From the IMG/VR virus record IMGVR_UViG_3300046804_003087, positions 1 through 36,989 of that record: a DNA stretch of 36,989 nt. One strand, 5' to 3'. The notes beneath the pieces were generated by a model. The model was given only the letters and a program-made list of their open reading frames with translations. It was not told the origin of the DNA and did no database searches. This DNA comes from a virus. Below, piece after piece: positions 25,226-34,687 of this stretch (the stretch's first letter is position 1; each line of letters opens with the position of its first letter). Both the position numbers and the translations under genes were made by a program.

Positions 25226-25921
25226 ATGAAAAAATGTAAAAACTGTGGAAACGATATTGTTTCAAAGAACTCGATAGTTTTTTGTGGTAGGTCTTGTTCG
25301 GCAATCTATAATAACAAAAAGAGAATACATTCCGAATCATCTAAACAAAAACGTAGCATAGCGGCAACAAATTTGTGGGCTAATGGTGTTTATAGTCATA
25401 TAGAACAATTCAAACGTAATAGAATAACTAAAACGTGTATATCATGTGGAAATGAATTCGAAACAGTCCAATCGAATAATTATCGGGCGTGTTCGATTAA
25501 GTGTAAAAACTATGCATACGAAAACAATCTATACGACCTAAAAGGTAAATCGGGTGGCTATCGAAAAGGTAGTGGTAGGGGAAAATCTGGTTGGTATAAA
25601 GGAGTATGGTGTGACAGCTCTTATGAATTGGCTTGGGTAATTTATCATATAGAAAACAACATACCATTTGAGAGAAACAAAGAGTCATTTCAGTATGAAT
25701 ATAATGGTGAAATTCACTTATATTATCCTGATTTTAGATTAAAGGAATCAAATGAATTGGTGGAGATAAAGGGATTTTATACAGAGCAAACTCATGTAAA
25801 ATTGAAATCGGTTACCAATACTAAATTGACCGTTATTGATAAACAGAAGATACAACCCTATATTGATTACGTTACTGATAGGTATGGGAAAAACTTCGTT
25901 TCTTTATATGAATCTCCGTAA
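25226..25921 (+). CDS. Zinc-finger PD-(D/E)XK homing-type endonuclease
   Basis: 231 residues; AAAAGGAGACATT precedes the ATG. The N-terminal ~95 residues hold two Cys-rich fingers: CKNCG with CGRSC, and CISCG with CSIKC. The C-terminal domain has SGWYKGVWCDSSYELAWVIY, IPFERNKESFQYEYNG, then YYPDFRL and ELVEIKG, the D...E-x-K arrangement of PD-(D/E)XK nucleases seen in some phage free-standing or intron homing enzymes. It probably cuts a specific site in related phages. It sits directly behind a tRNA cluster, a common homing site, and has an ATATTTAT motif like the HNH genes here. Confidence 0.75.
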   Translation: MKKCKNCGNDIVSKNSIVFCGRSCSAIYNNKKRIHSESSKQKRSIAATNLWANGVYSHIEQFKRNRITKTCISCGNEFETVQSNNYRACSIKCKNYAYENNLYDLKGKSGGYRKGSGRGKSGWYKGVWCDSSYELAWVIYHIENNIPFERNKESFQYEYNGEIHLYYPDFRLKESNELVEIKGFYTEQTHVKLKSVTNTKLTVIDKQKIQPYIDYVTDRYGKNFVSLYESP

Positions 25922-25973: not shown

Positions 25974-26004
25974 TTGGAAATTACAAAAAAATTTCGTAGA
26001 TTTG
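25974..26004 (+). promoter_or_regulatory. Promoter TTTGG, TTG-N20-TAGATTTG for DNA ligase
   Basis: TTGGAAATTAC at 25974 and TAGATTTG at 25997. With the preceding T this equals TTTG-N20-TAGATTTG, an exact match to the Bacteroidota -33/-7 consensus. Confidence 0.8.
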
Positions 26005-26037
26005 TATGTTCGTAAAATTCATACAAAAGGTTTCCTA

Positions 26038-27120
26038 ATGAAAACAACATTCCCAACAATTTACAAATACGATTCTCGTGGTCTCGTTCAAGAATGGACT
26101 ATCGAAGTTCAAGGCAACAAGTTTTGGACTATTGAAGGCGTCAAGGGTGGTAAACTAACAAAGTCAGAACCAACCGTTTGTTTTGGTAAAAATGTTGGTC
26201 GTGCTAATGAAACAACCGATTCCGAACAAGCTCTCCGCGAAGCACAATCAAAATTCCAAAAGAAGTTAGACAAGGGTTACAATGAGAAACTTACAAAGAC
26301 AAAGAAGTTTTTTGAACCAATGTTGGCACAAAAGTATGAGAAGTATTCAGACCTATGTTTTGTCAATCCTACCTTTATTCAACCAAAGTTGGACGGCCTC
26401 CGTTGTATCAATTCTGATGGTACGATGATGTCACGTAACGGTAAACCGTTCCTCACGGTTGACCACTTGACACAAGATGTTGCAATTCTTGACGGTGAAT
26501 TGTATGCACACGATTATAGTGATGACTTCAACAAGATTGTTTCACTTGTGAAGAAGACAAAACCAACCCAAGAAGATATTGAAGAATGTCAATCTGTTAT
26601 GGAGTTTTGGGCATACGATTTCCCTGAATGGGATGGTGTATTCTCCGAACGGTATGCGGAATTAAAGAAGGTGGTAAAGTCTTTGAAGAATCCAATGATT
26701 AAGGTTGTACCTACATATCAAGTTCATTCAGAAGAAGACATCCAAAAGTACCACGAACAATTCCTCGAAGAAGGTTACGAAGGTTCAATCATCCGTGTAG
26801 ATATTGCACCGTATGAGAACAAGCGTTCAAAGCAACTTCTAAAGAAGAAGGACTTTTACGATGGTGAGTTCACTATTGTTGATGTTGAAGAAGGTAAGGG
26901 AAACCGTGCAGGAACTGCTGGAAACCTTATCCTCGAATTAGAAGATGGTCGTACATTCGGTGCAACACTTCGTGGTTCACGTCAATGGGTTCGTTCGGTG
27001 TTGGAGAATCGTGATAACCTTATCGGTAAGACTGCGACTATCAAGTATTTCCAAGAGACTCCCGATGGTATTCCCCGTTTCGGTGTTGCTATCCAAATTG
27101 ACCGTGAATCCTACGAGTAA
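26038..27120 (+). CDS. ATP-dependent DNA ligase with WGR-like N-terminal domain
   Basis: 360 residues from ATG 26038; a frame extension upstream to 26002 lies inside the promoter and is rejected. Residues 1-90 look WGR-like (WTIEVQGNKFWTIEGVKGGK, then GKNVGRANETT and EA..KFQKKLDKGY). The adenylation domain has motif I KLDGLR (K117), LDGELYAHD, WAYDFPEWDG, motif IV EGYEGSIIRVD and motif V LLKKKDFYDGEF. The C-terminal OB-like part follows (GNLILELEDGRTFGATLRGS). It seals nicks in replication and recombination. The codon choice (many CGT, GTT, ATC) suggests strong early expression. Confidence 0.9.
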   Translation: MKTTFPTIYKYDSRGLVQEWTIEVQGNKFWTIEGVKGGKLTKSEPTVCFGKNVGRANETTDSEQALREAQSKFQKKLDKGYNEKLTKTKKFFEPMLAQKYEKYSDLCFVNPTFIQPKLDGLRCINSDGTMMSRNGKPFLTVDHLTQDVAILDGELYAHDYSDDFNKIVSLVKKTKPTQEDIEECQSVMEFWAYDFPEWDGVFSERYAELKKVVKSLKNPMIKVVPTYQVHSEEDIQKYHEQFLEEGYEGSIIRVDIAPYENKRSKQLLKKKDFYDGEFTIVDVEEGKGNRAGTAGNLILELEDGRTFGATLRGSRQWVRSVLENRDNLIGKTATIKYFQETPDGIPRFGVAIQIDRESYE

Positions 27121-27938: not shown

Positions 27939-27943
27939 AGGTG

Positions 27944-28465
27944 ATGCTACACAAACACCATATAATACCCAAACACATGGGAGGACCAGATGATCCTAAT
28001 AATCTCATTGAGTTGACGATTGCGGAACACGCAGAAGCTCATCGTATTTTATGGGAAACCTATGGTAAACAAGAAGACTTTTTAGCTTGGAAATCTTTAT
28101 CCAAACAAATTGATGAAGAACAAATCCAAGAAATTCGTTCATCAATCGGTGGTAAGAACAATAAAGGAAGACCAAAAAGTGATGATACGAAACGAAAAAT
28201 GTCAGAGACTAAAAAGAAAATGATTCAAGATGGTACACTACTTGTGCCAAAAATGGATGAAGTGAATCGCGAAAAAATATCAAACGCCCTAAAGGGAAAC
28301 AATAATTTCAAGAAGGGTTGGAGTGAAGAGAGGCGAAAGGCTTTCTCCGAGAGAATGAAGCAATCTCATCGGGAAAATCCAAGAGTCTTTGAGAGAGATG
28401 AAACAGGAAAAATAAAATGCACCCGTAGCTCAGCTGGACAGCAGCAATTGCCTTCTAAGCAATAG
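27944..28465 (+). CDS. HNH homing endonuclease, C-terminus runs into tRNA-Arg
   Basis: 173 residues from ATG 27944 (GTG at 27941 is possible). The HNH core is at the very N-terminus: LHKHHIIPKHMGGPDDPNNL, then ELTIAEHAEAHRIL. NUMOD3-like DNA-binding segments follow (SDDTKRKMSETKKK and SEERRKAFSERMKQSH). The last ~16 codons lie inside the tRNA-Arg gene, and the stop is in its anticodon stem, so endonuclease and tRNA share 47 bases. It probably mobilises itself between phage genomes at the tRNA locus. Confidence 0.75.
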   Translation: MLHKHHIIPKHMGGPDDPNNLIELTIAEHAEAHRILWETYGKQEDFLAWKSLSKQIDEEQIQEIRSSIGGKNNKGRPKSDDTKRKMSETKKKMIQDGTLLVPKMDEVNREKISNALKGNNNFKKGWSEERRKAFSERMKQSHRENPRVFERDETGKIKCTRSSAGQQQLPSKQ

Positions 28466-28493
28466 GTCATTGGTTCAAATCCAATCGGGTGTG
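28419..28493 (+). tRNA. tRNA-Arg (UCU)
   Basis: Acceptor GCACCCG/CGGGTGT, anticodon stem ATTGC/GCAAT with loop CTTCTAA (anticodon TCT), T-loop TTCAAAT. D-stem is only three clear pairs (GCT/AGC). It reads AGA, common in the tail genes. Its first 47 bases are also HNH coding sequence. Confidence 0.85.
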
Positions 28494-28498
28494 CAAAC

Positions 28499-28515
28499 GT
28501 GTTATCGTTCTTTGA
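28499..28515 (+). repeat. Left arm of a perfect 17-bp inverted repeat
   Basis: GTGTTATCGTTCTTTGA at 28499-28515 is the exact reverse complement of 28899-28915. The arms enclose a single gene between tRNA-Arg and tRNA-Ser. Confidence 0.9.
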
Positions 28516-28533
28516 AATAATAAGGAGACTATT

Positions 28534-28890
28534 ATGGATATAACATCATTTACTTTGGGTATATTGTCTGTTGCATTTACATTTAATTTTGTAGGTGCAG
28601 TTTTCAATTTAGTCATGGTTTACAAATTAAAAAGAGAACTCAACGAGTTCAATCAGATGATTAGCGATACTACAAATTGGACGAGCAACAAATTCGATTC
28701 AACAAACGATAAAATTGAATCCCAGAACGCACAGCTGTATAGGGATATGATAAGAATTTTCGATTCTCGCCTTGATAAGGTGGCAAATCGAATTGACCGA
28801 TTGGAACGTGAACACTTGGGTAAGTCAAGAGATGACGAAGCTATTTCAGAACGAGTCACGAAACTTCAAAAAGAATTACTAAAAGATTAA
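28534..28890 (+). CDS. Membrane-anchored coiled-coil protein
   Basis: 118 residues; AATAAGGAGACTATT precedes the ATG. One hydrophobic segment near the N-terminus (SFTLGILSVAFTFNFVGAVF into NLVMVY, ~5-30) is followed by a long helical region with heptad character (RMIRIFDSRLDKVANRIDRL-like spacing of I/L/V) and a charged end. Probably inserted in the inner membrane with a cytoplasmic coiled coil. It is the only gene between the 17-bp inverted repeat arms. Function unknown; an exclusion or membrane-scaffold role is conceivable. Confidence 0.65.
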   Translation: MDITSFTLGILSVAFTFNFVGAVFNLVMVYKLKRELNEFNQMISDTTNWTSNKFDSTNDKIESQNAQLYRDMIRIFDSRLDKVANRIDRLEREHLGKSRDDEAISERVTKLQKELLKD

Positions 28891-28898
28891 CAAACTAA

Positions 28899-28915
28899 TC
28901 AAAGAACGATAACAC
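28899..28915 (+). repeat. Right arm of the 17-bp inverted repeat
   Basis: TCAAAGAACGATAACAC at 28899-28915, eight bases after the stop of the membrane/coiled-coil gene and three before tRNA-Ser. Confidence 0.9.
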
Positions 28916-28918
28916 ATT

Positions 28919-29003
28919 GGAGGGTTGCCCGAACGGTAAGGGGACGGTTTGCTAAACCGTAGCCGGGTTCACACCCGAACTGGTTCGATTCCAGTACCCT
29001 CCG
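28919..29003 (+). tRNA. tRNA-Ser (GCU)
   Basis: Acceptor GGAGGGT/ACCCTCC, anticodon stem ACGGT/ACCGT with loop TTGCTAA (anticodon GCT), long variable arm, T-loop TTCGATT. Confidence 0.9.
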
Positions 29004-29023
29004 CAACTAACTTGAAAAAGTGC

Positions 29024-29054
29024 TTGGAATTGTCAAGAATTTTTCATAGATTAG
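29024..29054 (+). promoter_or_regulatory. Promoter TTGGAATTG, TTG-N20-TAGATTAG
   Basis: TTGGAATTGTC at 29024 and TAGATTAG at 29047. The leader to the ParB-like gene is ~75 bases with no other feature seen. Confidence 0.75.
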
Positions 29055-29134
29055 TAAAGGTTGTTCAAGTTTTATACACAGAGGAACAGCCGCTATACAA
29101 TTCATTATGTTTCATTATTGTTAAAGGCATTGCC

Positions 29135-30610
29135 ATGAAGAACAATAATCGGAGTTCAAATCATAACTCCAAAATTCAAAACTCGTACACTAATGTACAG
29201 GTTTATCGTCAACAAAGCGGAGCAGATTTTGAGAAGGAAATCCGCGACCGTCTCGTCTCACGGGGAATTATTACAAAAAAGAAAACAGTCCTCGTCGCAT
29301 CAAATCCTGATGTAAAGAAAATTTCAGACTATTTCTTCGTTGGTGAAAAGAAAAAGAACAAGTATTGGATTGAGGCAACTACCTGCATCACCAATCAAGC
29401 TCGTGTAGAAGAATTAATAACCAAGAAGGAAAAAGTACAAGCCGTAGACCCAACTATCAACAATTGGGTAGTATTCTTCCGTAAGGATCCACGTCAACGT
29501 AATCAATCACAAAGCACTATCAACTCTTTTGAAAAGCAGTTTACTAAAGCTGGTTATGTATTCTGCAATGGTGATGACGAAATCAATAACTATATTGAAG
29601 GTATCTTAAAGACTGAGGGTATGTCATCACGTCCTACTATCAATATTGCTAAGGGTGCGATGATTCCGCTCAATAGGATAAAAACACATCCAGATAATCG
29701 GACAATAGAATTTCAAAATAAAGATCGTTTGGTTGATTCAATTACGGATGTTGGTTTTGTCACACAATTGAATGTAGTTCCAGAATCAATTAACGGCGTC
29801 TTAACTGGGTACTATCTAATTATTGAAGGAAATACCCGTTACGAAGCACTAATGGACGTTGTTCAAATGGGCAACTTACCAGAAGATGTGGAAGTCCTCT
29901 GTTCAGTTGTTCACTGGCTTACTTCTGAAGATAAGGAAGAAGTTAATGAACTTCTCTGCCGATTGAATACAATGATTGTAAATTGGAAGATGAAGAATTA
30001 TATCAAGTGGCATTACGATACATCACAACCGTCTAGGGTAGATAATCCCCACAAGCACTCAAGTTATAGTGTGTTAACATGGCTTAGTTCAGATGAAGCA
30101 CGAAGGACTTTAGTTCAGAAGAACGGTAAGTCATCGTTTGAATTACTCGGAGAAACTAAGTTGATTTACATCTATGGACCAAAACTGAGTAACGCAACGA
30201 ATTCAAAGTGGATTGATACAAACCTTATTAACAAAGGTCACTATCGTAGTGGAACCGAAGACGATCCATTCTTTGAAAAGCGGCTTATGGAAAGCCACCG
30301 TTTGGATGTCCTGATGCCATTCCACAAGTGGTATGTTCAAAGTGATGATGTAGAATTTGATATGGATGTACTAACCCGCTTTATGAAAGGTTCTTGGGAG
30401 CGATACAAGAATGCAAACGGTGATAATACTGACGAAGTTAATCTGTTATCCGAATACTTTAAACAGAATCCTCCTGTAAAGGCAACACATATTGATGGTA
30501 ATTTTTGGATTGATGCCGATGCCTATGTTAAGAAAAACATCACGAAGAAAACAAAAAAGGTAAAATTTTCCGTGTCTGATATAACTCCTTATAAATCAAT
30601 GACTTACTAA
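29135..30610 (+). CDS. Fusion of PD-(D/E)XK-like and ParB-like domains
   Basis: 491 residues from ATG 29135; upstream in-frame codons lie in the promoter and tRNA-Ser and are rejected. Residues ~25-150 look like a restriction-type nuclease fold: SGADFEKEIRDRLVSRG, then DYFFVGEKKKNKYWIEATT, where the usual E-x-K is E-A-T. Residues ~175-275 are ParB/Srx-like: IPLNRIKTHPDNRTIEFQNK, LVDSITDVGFVTQLNVVPES, and YYLIIEGNTRYEAL (the GNTR motif replaces GEHR). The remaining ~215 residues are unassigned. ParB-like folds can bind CTP or act as nucleases. The role may be host-DNA processing or defence, which is inferred. Confidence 0.65.
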   Translation: MKNNNRSSNHNSKIQNSYTNVQVYRQQSGADFEKEIRDRLVSRGIITKKKTVLVASNPDVKKISDYFFVGEKKKNKYWIEATTCITNQARVEELITKKEKVQAVDPTINNWVVFFRKDPRQRNQSQSTINSFEKQFTKAGYVFCNGDDEINNYIEGILKTEGMSSRPTINIAKGAMIPLNRIKTHPDNRTIEFQNKDRLVDSITDVGFVTQLNVVPESINGVLTGYYLIIEGNTRYEALMDVVQMGNLPEDVEVLCSVVHWLTSEDKEEVNELLCRLNTMIVNWKMKNYIKWHYDTSQPSRVDNPHKHSSYSVLTWLSSDEARRTLVQKNGKSSFELLGETKLIYIYGPKLSNATNSKWIDTNLINKGHYRSGTEDDPFFEKRLMESHRLDVLMPFHKWYVQSDDVEFDMDVLTRFMKGSWERYKNANGDNTDEVNLLSEYFKQNPPVKATHIDGNFWIDADAYVKKNITKKTKKVKFSVSDITPYKSMTY

Positions 30611-30614
30611 GTCG

Positions 30615-30682
30615 TTATGCGGCAAGGACTTACGAAGACGGAATCTCCTAACCTTCGTAAGTCCTTATGCGGCAAAGACTTA
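30615..30682 (+). repeat. Direct repeat and 14-bp perfect hairpin
   Basis: TTATGCGGCAAGGACTTA (30615-30632) recurs with one change at 30665-30682. Between and overlapping them, AAGGACTTACGAAG (30624-30637) and CTTCGTAAGTCCTT (30653-30666) form a perfect 14-bp stem with a 15-base loop. No T run follows the stem, so it is not a standard terminator. Confidence 0.8.
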
Positions 30683-30687
30683 AAAAG

Positions 30688-30696
30688 TTTTCCACA
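30688..30696 (+). promoter_or_regulatory. DnaA-box-like TTTTCCACA
   Basis: Fits the relaxed DnaA consensus TTWTNCACA and lies 14 bases before the TTG element, the same arrangement as at 25949. Confidence 0.45.
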
Positions 30697-30710
30697 CCTT
30701 CATTTTTTGC

Positions 30711-30741
30711 TTGGAAATACCAAAAATTCTTCGTAGTTTTG
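30711..30741 (+). promoter_or_regulatory. Promoter TTGGAAAT, TTG-N20-TAGTTTTG
   Basis: TTGGAAATACC at 30711 and TAGTTTTG at 30734, very close to the ligase promoter and to the Bacteroidota TAnnTTTG element. Confidence 0.8.
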
Positions 30742-30776
30742 TGTATTCAATTTTCTAACACTTCAAGGAGAAGACA

Positions 30777-31271
30777 ATGGGTCTCGATATGTATCTCACC
30801 AAAAAGACGTTCATTGGTGCGAACTATGAACATCGTGGTGTATCTGGTAAGGTTGACCTTACAATCAAGGATTCACCCGTAAATATCAATCTCAACCGTG
30901 TAACTTATATTTCCGAACAAGTAGGTTACTGGCGTAAGGCAAATCAAATTCATAATTGGTTTGTTCAAAATGTTCAAGGTGGCGAAGATAATTGTAGAGA
31001 CCACAGGGTATCTCGTGAGGACCTTCAGAATCTTCTTCAAACAGTAAACCTTGTTCTGAATGCAAAGGGAACTCCCGAAGAATCTTCCATCATCGAAGAG
31101 AATCTTCCACCAACAGAAGGATTCTTTTTCGGTACAACGGAAATTAACGAGTGGTATTGGGACGACTTGGAATTGACAAAACAAATCGTTTCCGATGTTC
31201 TTGCAGAGATGGACGAGGACTCAAAGAACCCCGACTCATGGGTTGACTATTATTATGCTTCTTCTTGGTAA
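30777..31271 (+). CDS. Conserved protein of unknown function (MGLDMYL family)
   Basis: 164 residues; AAGGAGAAGACA precedes the ATG. The N-terminus MGLDMYLTKKTFIG, the centre VGYWRKANQIHNWFVQNVQGG, and TEGFFFGTTEINEWYWDDLE form a pattern found widely in phage and bacterial hypothetical proteins, as I recall. No known catalytic role. Codon choice resembles the replication genes, and the promoter is near-consensus, so early expression is likely. The next gene follows after 14 bases. Confidence 0.75.
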   Translation: MGLDMYLTKKTFIGANYEHRGVSGKVDLTIKDSPVNINLNRVTYISEQVGYWRKANQIHNWFVQNVQGGEDNCRDHRVSREDLQNLLQTVNLVLNAKGTPEESSIIEENLPPTEGFFFGTTEINEWYWDDLELTKQIVSDVLAEMDEDSKNPDSWVDYYYASSW

Positions 31272-31285
31272 TTGGAGTAAAAACA

Positions 31286-31639
31286 ATGAACAATCTTCCA
31301 GAAAAAATTGTTAGTCTTTATCCACCAACAATAATTCATACAGTACATGACAAAAAATTTGCTGTTTATTCTAGTTCAGGTTGGTTTGAGGTCGATGAGG
31401 ATTTTACGTTACAGGATGCTTACGACCGATGGGAAAAATGGGTGCCGTCAGGCAAGCCCCTTAATGAATCAATACAGGACAAGTCTTGGGAAGTTGAATC
31501 ATCGAAGAAAGGTTCATTCTATACTGTAAGAAATAATGGTAATTATTGGGGATGTTCTTGTCCAGCCAATACTTATCATAGAAATAAAGAGTGTAGGCAC
31601 ATAAAAGAAATTAAGGAGAAAACAGGATGGAAACCGTAG
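31286..31639 (+). CDS. SWIM-type zinc-finger protein
   Basis: 117 residues from ATG 31286, with GGAG 8 bases upstream. The N-terminal half is alpha/beta (PTIIHTVHDKKFAVYSSSGW). Residues ~70-117 carry SSKKGSFYTVRNNGNYWGCS and CPANTYHRNKECRHIKEIKE, i.e. the CxC...CxH pattern of SWIM zinc fingers, which bind nucleic acid or proteins and occur in transposases and recombination mediators. No catalytic domain is attached. It overlaps the next small gene by 13 bases. Confidence 0.7.
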   Translation: MNNLPEKIVSLYPPTIIHTVHDKKFAVYSSSGWFEVDEDFTLQDAYDRWEKWVPSGKPLNESIQDKSWEVESSKKGSFYTVRNNGNYWGCSCPANTYHRNKECRHIKEIKEKTGWKP

Positions 31640-31788
31640 GGACTACTGAATCCCGAAAACGTCAGGCACAAGTCGAGGCTGGTGTATATGATGGAAGGTA
31701 CAAGACGAAGGTGGTAGAGGACAAGAAAAAGAAGGTAGCAAAAATTGCTTGCCGCAAGTTCAAACAAATAAAAATTGACGGCGAGTAA
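31627..31788 (+). CDS. Very small basic protein (53 aa)
   Basis: ATG 31627 follows AAGGAGAAAACAGG at a suitable distance and overlaps the SWIM gene by 13 bases. The product has ESRKRQAQVEAGVYDGRYKT followed by KVVEDKKKK, a basic motif I recall from small phage proteins (AGVYDGR..KVV.DKKK). It is probably nucleic-acid-binding given its charge, though that is inference. A promoter follows nine bases after the stop. Confidence 0.65.
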   Translation: METVGTTESRKRQAQVEAGVYDGRYKTKVVEDKKKKVAKIACRKFKQIKIDGE

Positions 31789-33967: not shown

Positions 33968-34687
33968 ATGAAAAGAGCAACAGAATCAAACATGGAAAGA
34001 TACTTGGAGTATGTGAACTTCATAAAAGAGTGTTCGAAGAAATCTTATTCTTCGGATTTGGTTTTACACAGACACCATATAGTTCCACGAAAATTGTGGG
34101 ATGATAAAGATATGTCTGTGAATGACCCTTCCAACCTAGTTCTATTATCGGTTGAAGACCATGTGATGGCCCATATCCTATATGCAAACGCATATGATTC
34201 AGATACAATAGAACATATAATGAATATGAGAAGTGCTCGCATACTGAATCGAAAATCAATACGTGATGTTCATACATTGAATAAAATAACAGAGACATAT
34301 GTTGGTAAAAAAAATCCGTTTTATGGAAAAAAACACAATGAAAAGACACGTCAAATTATCCGTGAATCCAACCGAAAGTTATTGACCGATGTCTCTTATG
34401 AAGAACGATATGGTCAGAACAGTTCGATAGAAAAAGAAAAGAGACGTGATGGAGTTCGTAGGAGTTGGGAGAATATGTCAGATGAACAGAAAGAACAGAG
34501 AAGAAAAAATATCTCAAAATCATTGGTGGGTAAAATGTCTGGTGGTAAAAATCCATTCGCAACACCGGTTATTGTAAATGGAATCCACTATGATAGTATA
34601 GCCGATGCCAGAAAAGAACTTGGAGTTAGTTCATACATACTAGAAAAACATTATGAAGTTATCAAATTAGAAAGGAAGAAGAAATGA
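33968..34687 (+). CDS. HNH homing endonuclease with NUMOD-like modules
   Basis: 239 residues. The HNH region is LHRHHIVPRKLWDDKDMS, then NLVLLSVEDHVMAHILYANA. NUMOD3-like modules follow (GKKNPFYGKKHNEKTRQIIR, and GKMSGGKNPF). The last ~35 residues (VNGIHYDSIADARKELGVSS) resemble the NUMOD1 helix-turn-helix used to read DNA. This is a typical free-standing homing endonuclease. Its stop overlaps the thioredoxin start (ATGA), so the two are translationally coupled. No ribosome site precedes it, and an ATATTTAT motif abuts the start. Confidence 0.8.
   Translation: MKRATESNMERYLEYVNFIKECSKKSYSSDLVLHRHHIVPRKLWDDKDMSVNDPSNLVLLSVEDHVMAHILYANAYDSDTIEHIMNMRSARILNRKSIRDVHTLNKITETYVGKKNPFYGKKHNEKTRQIIRESNRKLLTDVSYEERYGQNSSIEKEKRRDGVRRSWENMSDEQKEQRRKNISKSLVGKMSGGKNPFATPVIVNGIHYDSIADARKELGVSSYILEKHYEVIKLERKKK

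What the first reader, a model, noticed from the sequence alone, without database searches (positions are those of the whole stretch)
29135..30610. Nuclease-like plus ParB-like fusion protein
A PD-(D/E)XK-type N-terminal region with E-A-T instead of E-x-K is joined to a ParB-type domain with GNTR, plus a long unassigned C-terminal part, under its own near-consensus promoter. The combination may sense nucleotides and cut or clamp DNA: a candidate host-takeover or anti-competitor effector.
Basis: partly seen in the sequence, partly recalled or inferred. Interest (0 to 1): 0.65.

Follow-up and report, generated by a model that had tools for sequence, protein, structure and literature searches.

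The report
ParB-fold phage gene inserted beside tRNA
A phage carries a one-gene insertion directly after a tRNA gene that encodes an orphan protein with a nucleotide-binding ParB-type domain and a possible, unproven nuclease domain; it sits where mobile homing-endonuclease genes usually land, so it may be an unusual member of that kind of selfish gene.

Summary
The ORF is real: 29135-30610, 491 codons, with coding signal only in its own frame. Its middle (aa ~170-270, EGNTR 231-235) is a ParB/Srx-fold domain, recovered by several ParB PHROGs (best E 4e-7). The N-terminal PD-(D/E)XK reading is not established. No profile or PDB sequence matches it, both AF2 models are poor (pLDDT 32 and 39), and only the helix/strand order and a D65...E80-A-T fit. 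The C-terminus matches nothing. The promoter is not near-consensus sigma70.

The new result is comparative. The nearest sequenced phage (two assemblies, 99.98% identical) lacks exactly this gene. About 1,572 bp, window ~29010-30581, is inserted immediately after tRNA-Ser. The protein's last eight residues and stop codon are read from pre-existing intergenic DNA. Two other insertions relative to that phage in this region are HNH homing-type genes, one between tRNA-Ile and tRNA-Arg. No full-length relative was found anywhere searched.

Best explanation: a recently acquired free-standing mobile nuclease-type gene that behaves like a homing endonuclease, with an NTP-binding ParB module. The insertion is shown; nuclease and homing activity are inferred. 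Main rival: a ParB-fold accessory gene without homing. Novelty: new variant of a known kind, moderate interest.

The parts
29135..30610 (+). Focal ORF, 491 aa: N-terminal unassigned domain + ParB/Srx domain + unassigned C-terminus
   Evidence: ORF; coding log-odds only in own frame; ParB PHROG hits
29010..30581 (.). Inserted segment (~1,572 bp) relative to the nearest phage, starting just after tRNA-Ser; ends approximate to a few bases
   Evidence: Flanks contiguous in L087/L088
29192..29629 (+). N-terminal domain aa 20-165; candidate PD-(D/E)XK-like: helix with E33/E35, D65, E80-A-T82, lysines 97/98/100 in next helix
   Evidence: Secondary-structure order in low-confidence AF2 models; residue numbers; no profile match
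29630..29947 (+). ParB/Srx (ParB-CTPase) fold domain, HPDN 185-188 and P-motif EGNTR 231-235 (GxxR)
   Evidence: phrog_4715 E 3.8e-7, phrog_620 4.2e-6, phrog_1033 1.4e-4; Acetobacter plasmid ParB 30% over ~100 aa
29948..30607 (+). C-terminal region, unassigned; contains N-x4-W-type segment (LNTMIVNWKMKNYIKWH)
   Evidence: No Pfam/PHROG match; by-eye similarity to L097 only
30584..30610 (+). Last eight codons and stop (TPYKSMTY*), read from intergenic DNA that pre-dates the insertion
   Evidence: Same frame in L088 reads SPYKSTTY* in its gene-free spacer
28919..29004 (+). tRNA-Ser(gct) at the left insertion edge
   Evidence: ARAGORN; orthologous tRNA in L088
29021..29055 (+). 35-nt promoter-like element inside the insert, resembling the one upstream of the next gene (30708-30742)
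   Evidence: Direct repeat D2, 77%; TTGG-N19-TAGnTTTG form at 30711 and 25974
27941..28465 (+). HNH/NUMOD3 homing-type gene, clean insertion between tRNA-Ile and tRNA-Arg (supporting context)
   Evidence: phrog_655 1e-18, Pfam HNH and NUMOD3; absent from L088

Best explanation
The gene is a recently acquired, free-standing mobile nuclease-type gene. It works like a homing endonuclease: the protein cuts the insert-free allele near the 3' end of tRNA-Ser in a co-infecting relative, and break repair copies the gene in. Shown: a one-gene insertion exactly after tRNA-Ser, its absence from the nearest relative, its use of flanking DNA for its C-terminal tail, neighbouring HNH homing-type insertions, and a ParB-fold domain. 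Inferred: the N-terminal domain is the cutting domain (PD-(D/E)XK-like, lysine replaced or moved), the ParB fold binds an NTP that gates or clamps the protein on DNA, and the C-terminus helps target recognition.
For: Empty site in L087/L088 with both flanks conserved: window 28409-29005 and 30582-31778 are adjacent there (junctions). Last eight codons and stop come from the flank. HNH genes at 27941-28465 and 33968-34687 are insertions relative to the same phage. Codon log-odds per codon (0.189) fall between this phage's HNH genes (0.04-0.16) and its core genes (0.20-0.44). No relative in ~200 related-phage loci or 33 larger related records. Precedent: T4 segB is a free-standing homing endonuclease gene lying between tRNA-Arg and tRNA-Ile and targeting the tRNA intergenic region (PMC2988022). 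ParB fold.
Against: No recognised homing-endonuclease motif in the protein. The nuclease fold is unproven and the expected lysine is not at its usual place. Only one effective comparator virus shows the empty site, so loss in that lineage is not formally excluded. No paper consulted describes a ParB domain as part of a homing endonuclease.
Confidence: 0.38

Rival explanations
1. ParB-fold accessory (moron-type) gene: an NTP-binding DNA-associated protein that acts on transcription, DNA protection, superinfection or host defence. It was inserted by ordinary illegitimate or homologous recombination and is not itself a nuclease.
For: The ParB fold is the only certain domain. Phage ParB-fold proteins are often fused to unknown domains and bind CTP or ATP without known nuclease partners (PMC12704722).
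Against: The HEG-like clean single-gene insertion among HNH insertions is not specially explained by this reading.
Confidence: 0.37
2. NTP-regulated non-specific DNase (Osa-, GmrS- or DdrB-like ParB nuclease) degrading host or competitor DNA, with the ParB domain itself active: the first reader's effector idea.
For: ParB-like DNases or NTPases are described in Osa, GmrSD and phage DdrB-type proteins (PMC5512222).
Against: No sequence kinship beyond the fold was found. The gene is absent from close relatives and sits among tRNA genes, not in the late/virion context described for DdrB-type proteins.
Confidence: 0.15
3. The gene is ancestral and was deleted from the L088 lineage.
For: Only one effective comparator (L087 and L088 are 99.98% identical) spans the site.
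Against: No relative in any other related phage. The tail codons come from a spacer that is complete and gene-free in L088.
Confidence: 0.1

Closest known systems
Free-standing phage homing endonuclease genes, e.g. T4 segB (GIY-YIG) in the tRNA cluster
   Same: Single ORF inserted in an intergenic gap of a phage tRNA region, absent from a near relative, own upstream promoter-like element
   Different: No GIY-YIG, HNH or other homing motif; has a ParB-fold domain; cleavage and homing untested
Phage orphan ParB-fold fusions (PMC12704722; PHROGs 4715, 620, 1033; DUF6551 group)
   Same: ParB-CTPase fold with GxxR P-motif, no ParA seen among the scanned neighbours, fused to extra domains
   Different: No Pfam domain matched here; N-terminal partner matches none of the reported partners (DUF3850, DUF4417, methyltransferases)
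PD-(D/E)XK homing endonuclease I-Ssp6803I (own knowledge)
   Same: Would share fold class and tRNA association if the N-terminal assignment is right
   Different: That enzyme is intron-encoded and small; no sequence match to any PDB chain found here
ParB-like conflict nucleases: Osa, GmrS, DdrB-type (PMC5512222)
   Same: ParB/Srx fold in mobile DNA
   Different: Different architecture and context; no sequence kinship beyond the fold found

Membership tests
ParB/Srx (ParB-CTPase) fold | Domain similarity to known ParB-like families | tested here: met
   phrog_4715 3.8e-7, phrog_620 4.2e-6 and others; Pfam ParB_N itself not matched
ParB/Srx (ParB-CTPase) fold | P-motif GxxR | tested here: met
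   EGNTR 231-235
ParB/Srx (ParB-CTPase) fold | NTP binding | not testable with these tools
   Needs a binding assay such as DRaCALA
Canonical ParABS ParB | HTH and dimerisation domains, neighbouring parA | tested here: not met
   No Pfam HTH or dimerisation match; no ParA among the neighbouring proteins scanned
PD-(D/E)XK nuclease | Core alpha-beta-beta-beta-alpha-beta fold | tested here: inconclusive
   Element order compatible, but pLDDT 32 and 39; Foldseek best E 0.48, VRR_NUC 4qbl only at E 1.5-3.4
PD-(D/E)XK nuclease | D...(D/E)xK active site | tested here: inconclusive
   D65 and E80 present, T82 at the lysine position; conservation untestable without relatives
Free-standing homing endonuclease gene | Intergenic single-gene insertion with empty allele in a relative | tested here: met
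Free-standing homing endonuclease gene | Known homing nuclease domain (GIY-YIG, HNH, LAGLIDADG, EDxHD) | tested here: not met
   No such match in Pfam or PHROGs; hence not filed as a member, only 'works like'
Free-standing homing endonuclease gene | Cuts empty allele and is inherited preferentially | not testable with these tools
   Needs cleavage and mixed-infection assays

The most novel reading that the evidence does not exclude
A new class of mobile homing nuclease in which a ParB-type NTP switch is joined to a divergent PD-(D/E)XK cutter, so that homing at a phage tRNA locus is nucleotide-gated.
Probability: 0.17. Interest if true: 0.7.

Novelty: new variant of a known kind. Interest (0 to 1): 0.42.

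Why it matters
ParB-fold proteins outside chromosome segregation are a fresh and largely uncharacterised group of NTP switches. A phage member with an empty allele in an identified relative gives a concrete substrate (the L088 tRNA-Ser/spacer) on which cutting, NTP dependence and biased inheritance can be tested directly.

Tried and rejected
Relatives by pattern scan: viral contigs with the whole protein and the N-terminal domain, genome contigs; none. tblastn in phages: none at 0.01 for the whole protein, and at E up to 10 only chance-level ParB or short hits. Plasmids: ParB-only Acetobacter matches. About 1,190 genomes in the phyla of a Lutibacter MAG, Enterovibrio and a Ruminococcus MAG: none. 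GNTR patterns gave other ParB-fold proteins but none related outside the ParB domain. The ParB profile phrog_4715 found no ParB-like gene in 40 related phage records. AF2 on the full protein and the N-terminal domain, and Foldseek on the latter, gave nothing usable. Single-sequence hhalign was uninformative. Sigma70 promoter claim rejected. A set of randomly altered copies of the protein was generated as a possible degenerate query and dropped unused.

Full report
Setting. The window is a 36,989-bp IMG/VR virus record. Its tail-region, recombinase, DnaB-type helicase and RNR proteins are mostly 38-70% identical to, and largely collinear with, those of Microcystis phage Mel-JY01. The right half holds ten tRNA genes and several HNH genes.

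The ORF. 29135-30610 encodes 491 aa. The TTG-initiated longer form (28949) would start inside tRNA-Ser and is unlikely. Codon log-odds against the phage's own genes are positive only in the annotated frame (0.189 per codon; other frames -0.42 to -0.94), and the longest open frame in 200 base shuffles of the window was 163 aa. This is a genuine gene.

The ParB domain. Aa ~170-270 match several ParB-like PHROGs: phrog_4715 at 3.8e-7, phrog_620 at 4.2e-6, phrog_1033 at 1.4e-4. They also match Acetobacter plasmid ParB proteins at 30% over about 100 aa, ParB part only. The P-motif is EGNTR 231-235. Other GNTR-type ParB proteins exist in phages and bacteria. One of them, L095, is DUF6551, a fusion group whose phage members bound CTP or ATP (PMC12704722). 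NTP binding is therefore a fair inference, not a result here.

The N-terminal domain. Nothing convincing matches it: Pfam, PHROGs, PADLOC, NCBIfam or PDB by sequence (the weak PAX hit at 0.09-0.17 is below cutoff). Single-sequence AF2 gave pLDDT 31.7 for the whole protein and 38.7 for the domain. The secondary-structure order H-E-E-(E)-H-E-H-E-H is what a PD-(D/E)XK core would give, with D65 near the start of one strand and E80-A-T82 in the next. Foldseek gave no hit at E<=0.001. VRR_NUC (4qbl), a PD-(D/E)XK nuclease, appeared only at E 1.5-3.4 over 52 columns. I treat the nuclease assignment as about even odds. The missing lysine at position 82 cannot be judged without relatives; lysines 97, 98 and 100 in the next helix could stand in.

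The insertion. In L088 and L087 (two metagenome assemblies, 99.98% identical), window 28409-29005 and 30582-31778 correspond to adjacent DNA. The junctions read: tRNA-Ser end, CCGCA, short divergent stretch, then TAAnTCCTTATAAATCAAnGACTTACTAA. About 1,572 bp is extra in the window. The final codons TPYKSMTY and the TAA stop lie in the conserved spacer; the same frame in L088 reads SPYKSTTY and stop. This argues that the gene came into an existing spacer and uses its stop, rather than having been lost from L088. The insert also carries a 35-nt element like the one before the next gene.

Company. Relative to the same phage, HNH genes at 27941-28465 (between tRNA-Ile and tRNA-Arg) and 33968-34687 are also insertions, and the HNH gene at 25226-25921 lies in a replaced stretch. 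T4 segB, a proven homing endonuclease gene, sits between tRNA-Arg and tRNA-Ile and targets the tRNA intergenic region (PMC2988022). Clustering of homing-type nuclease genes in hot spots is a general phage pattern (PMC10448857).

Distribution. No relative was found in the phage, plasmid, viral-contig or genome-contig searches, in about 1,190 sampled genomes of three phyla, or in about 200 related-phage loci. These searches are limited: pattern scans reach only close relatives, genome phyla were sampled, and many contigs are fragments. 'Orphan at this sensitivity' is the claim.

Verdict. The ORF and ParB domain are sound, the nuclease is open, and the promoter claim is not supported as written. 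The strongest new fact is the clean post-tRNA insertion. The most likely reading is a homing-endonuclease-like mobile gene with an NTP-binding ParB module, with a non-homing ParB accessory gene almost as likely.

Noticed in passing
25974-26004 and 30711-30741: Two matching promoter-like elements (TTGG-N19-TAGnTTTG) upstream of the DNA ligase and of the phrog_7971 gene resemble the TAnnTTTG-type promoter of Bacteroidota; the host of this phage group may not be a cyanobacterium.
   Followed up: partly
27941-28465: HNH/NUMOD3 homing-type gene cleanly inserted between tRNA-Ile and tRNA-Arg; L088 has these tRNAs 10 nt apart.
   Followed up: yes
33968-34687: Another HNH homing-type gene absent from L088, at the start of the next gene.
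   Followed up: partly
30603-30687: Spacer after the focal gene holds direct copies of AAGTCnTTATGCGGCAA and a 14-nt perfect inverted repeat; the hairpin part is conserved in L088, the TATGCGGCAA filler is not.
   Followed up: partly
28496-28515 and 28899-28918: 20-nt inverted repeat (95%) flanking the small gene 28534-28890 between tRNA-Arg and tRNA-Ser.
   Followed up: no
L096:4977-6281 and L094: Phage proteins with a GNTR ParB-like domain and an N-terminal domain that by eye resembles a divergent GIY-YIG nuclease (YLYAW...FNIGSK); Pfam does not recognise it.
   Followed up: partly
26002-27120: ATP-dependent DNA ligase with a weak N-terminal WGR domain match.
   Followed up: no
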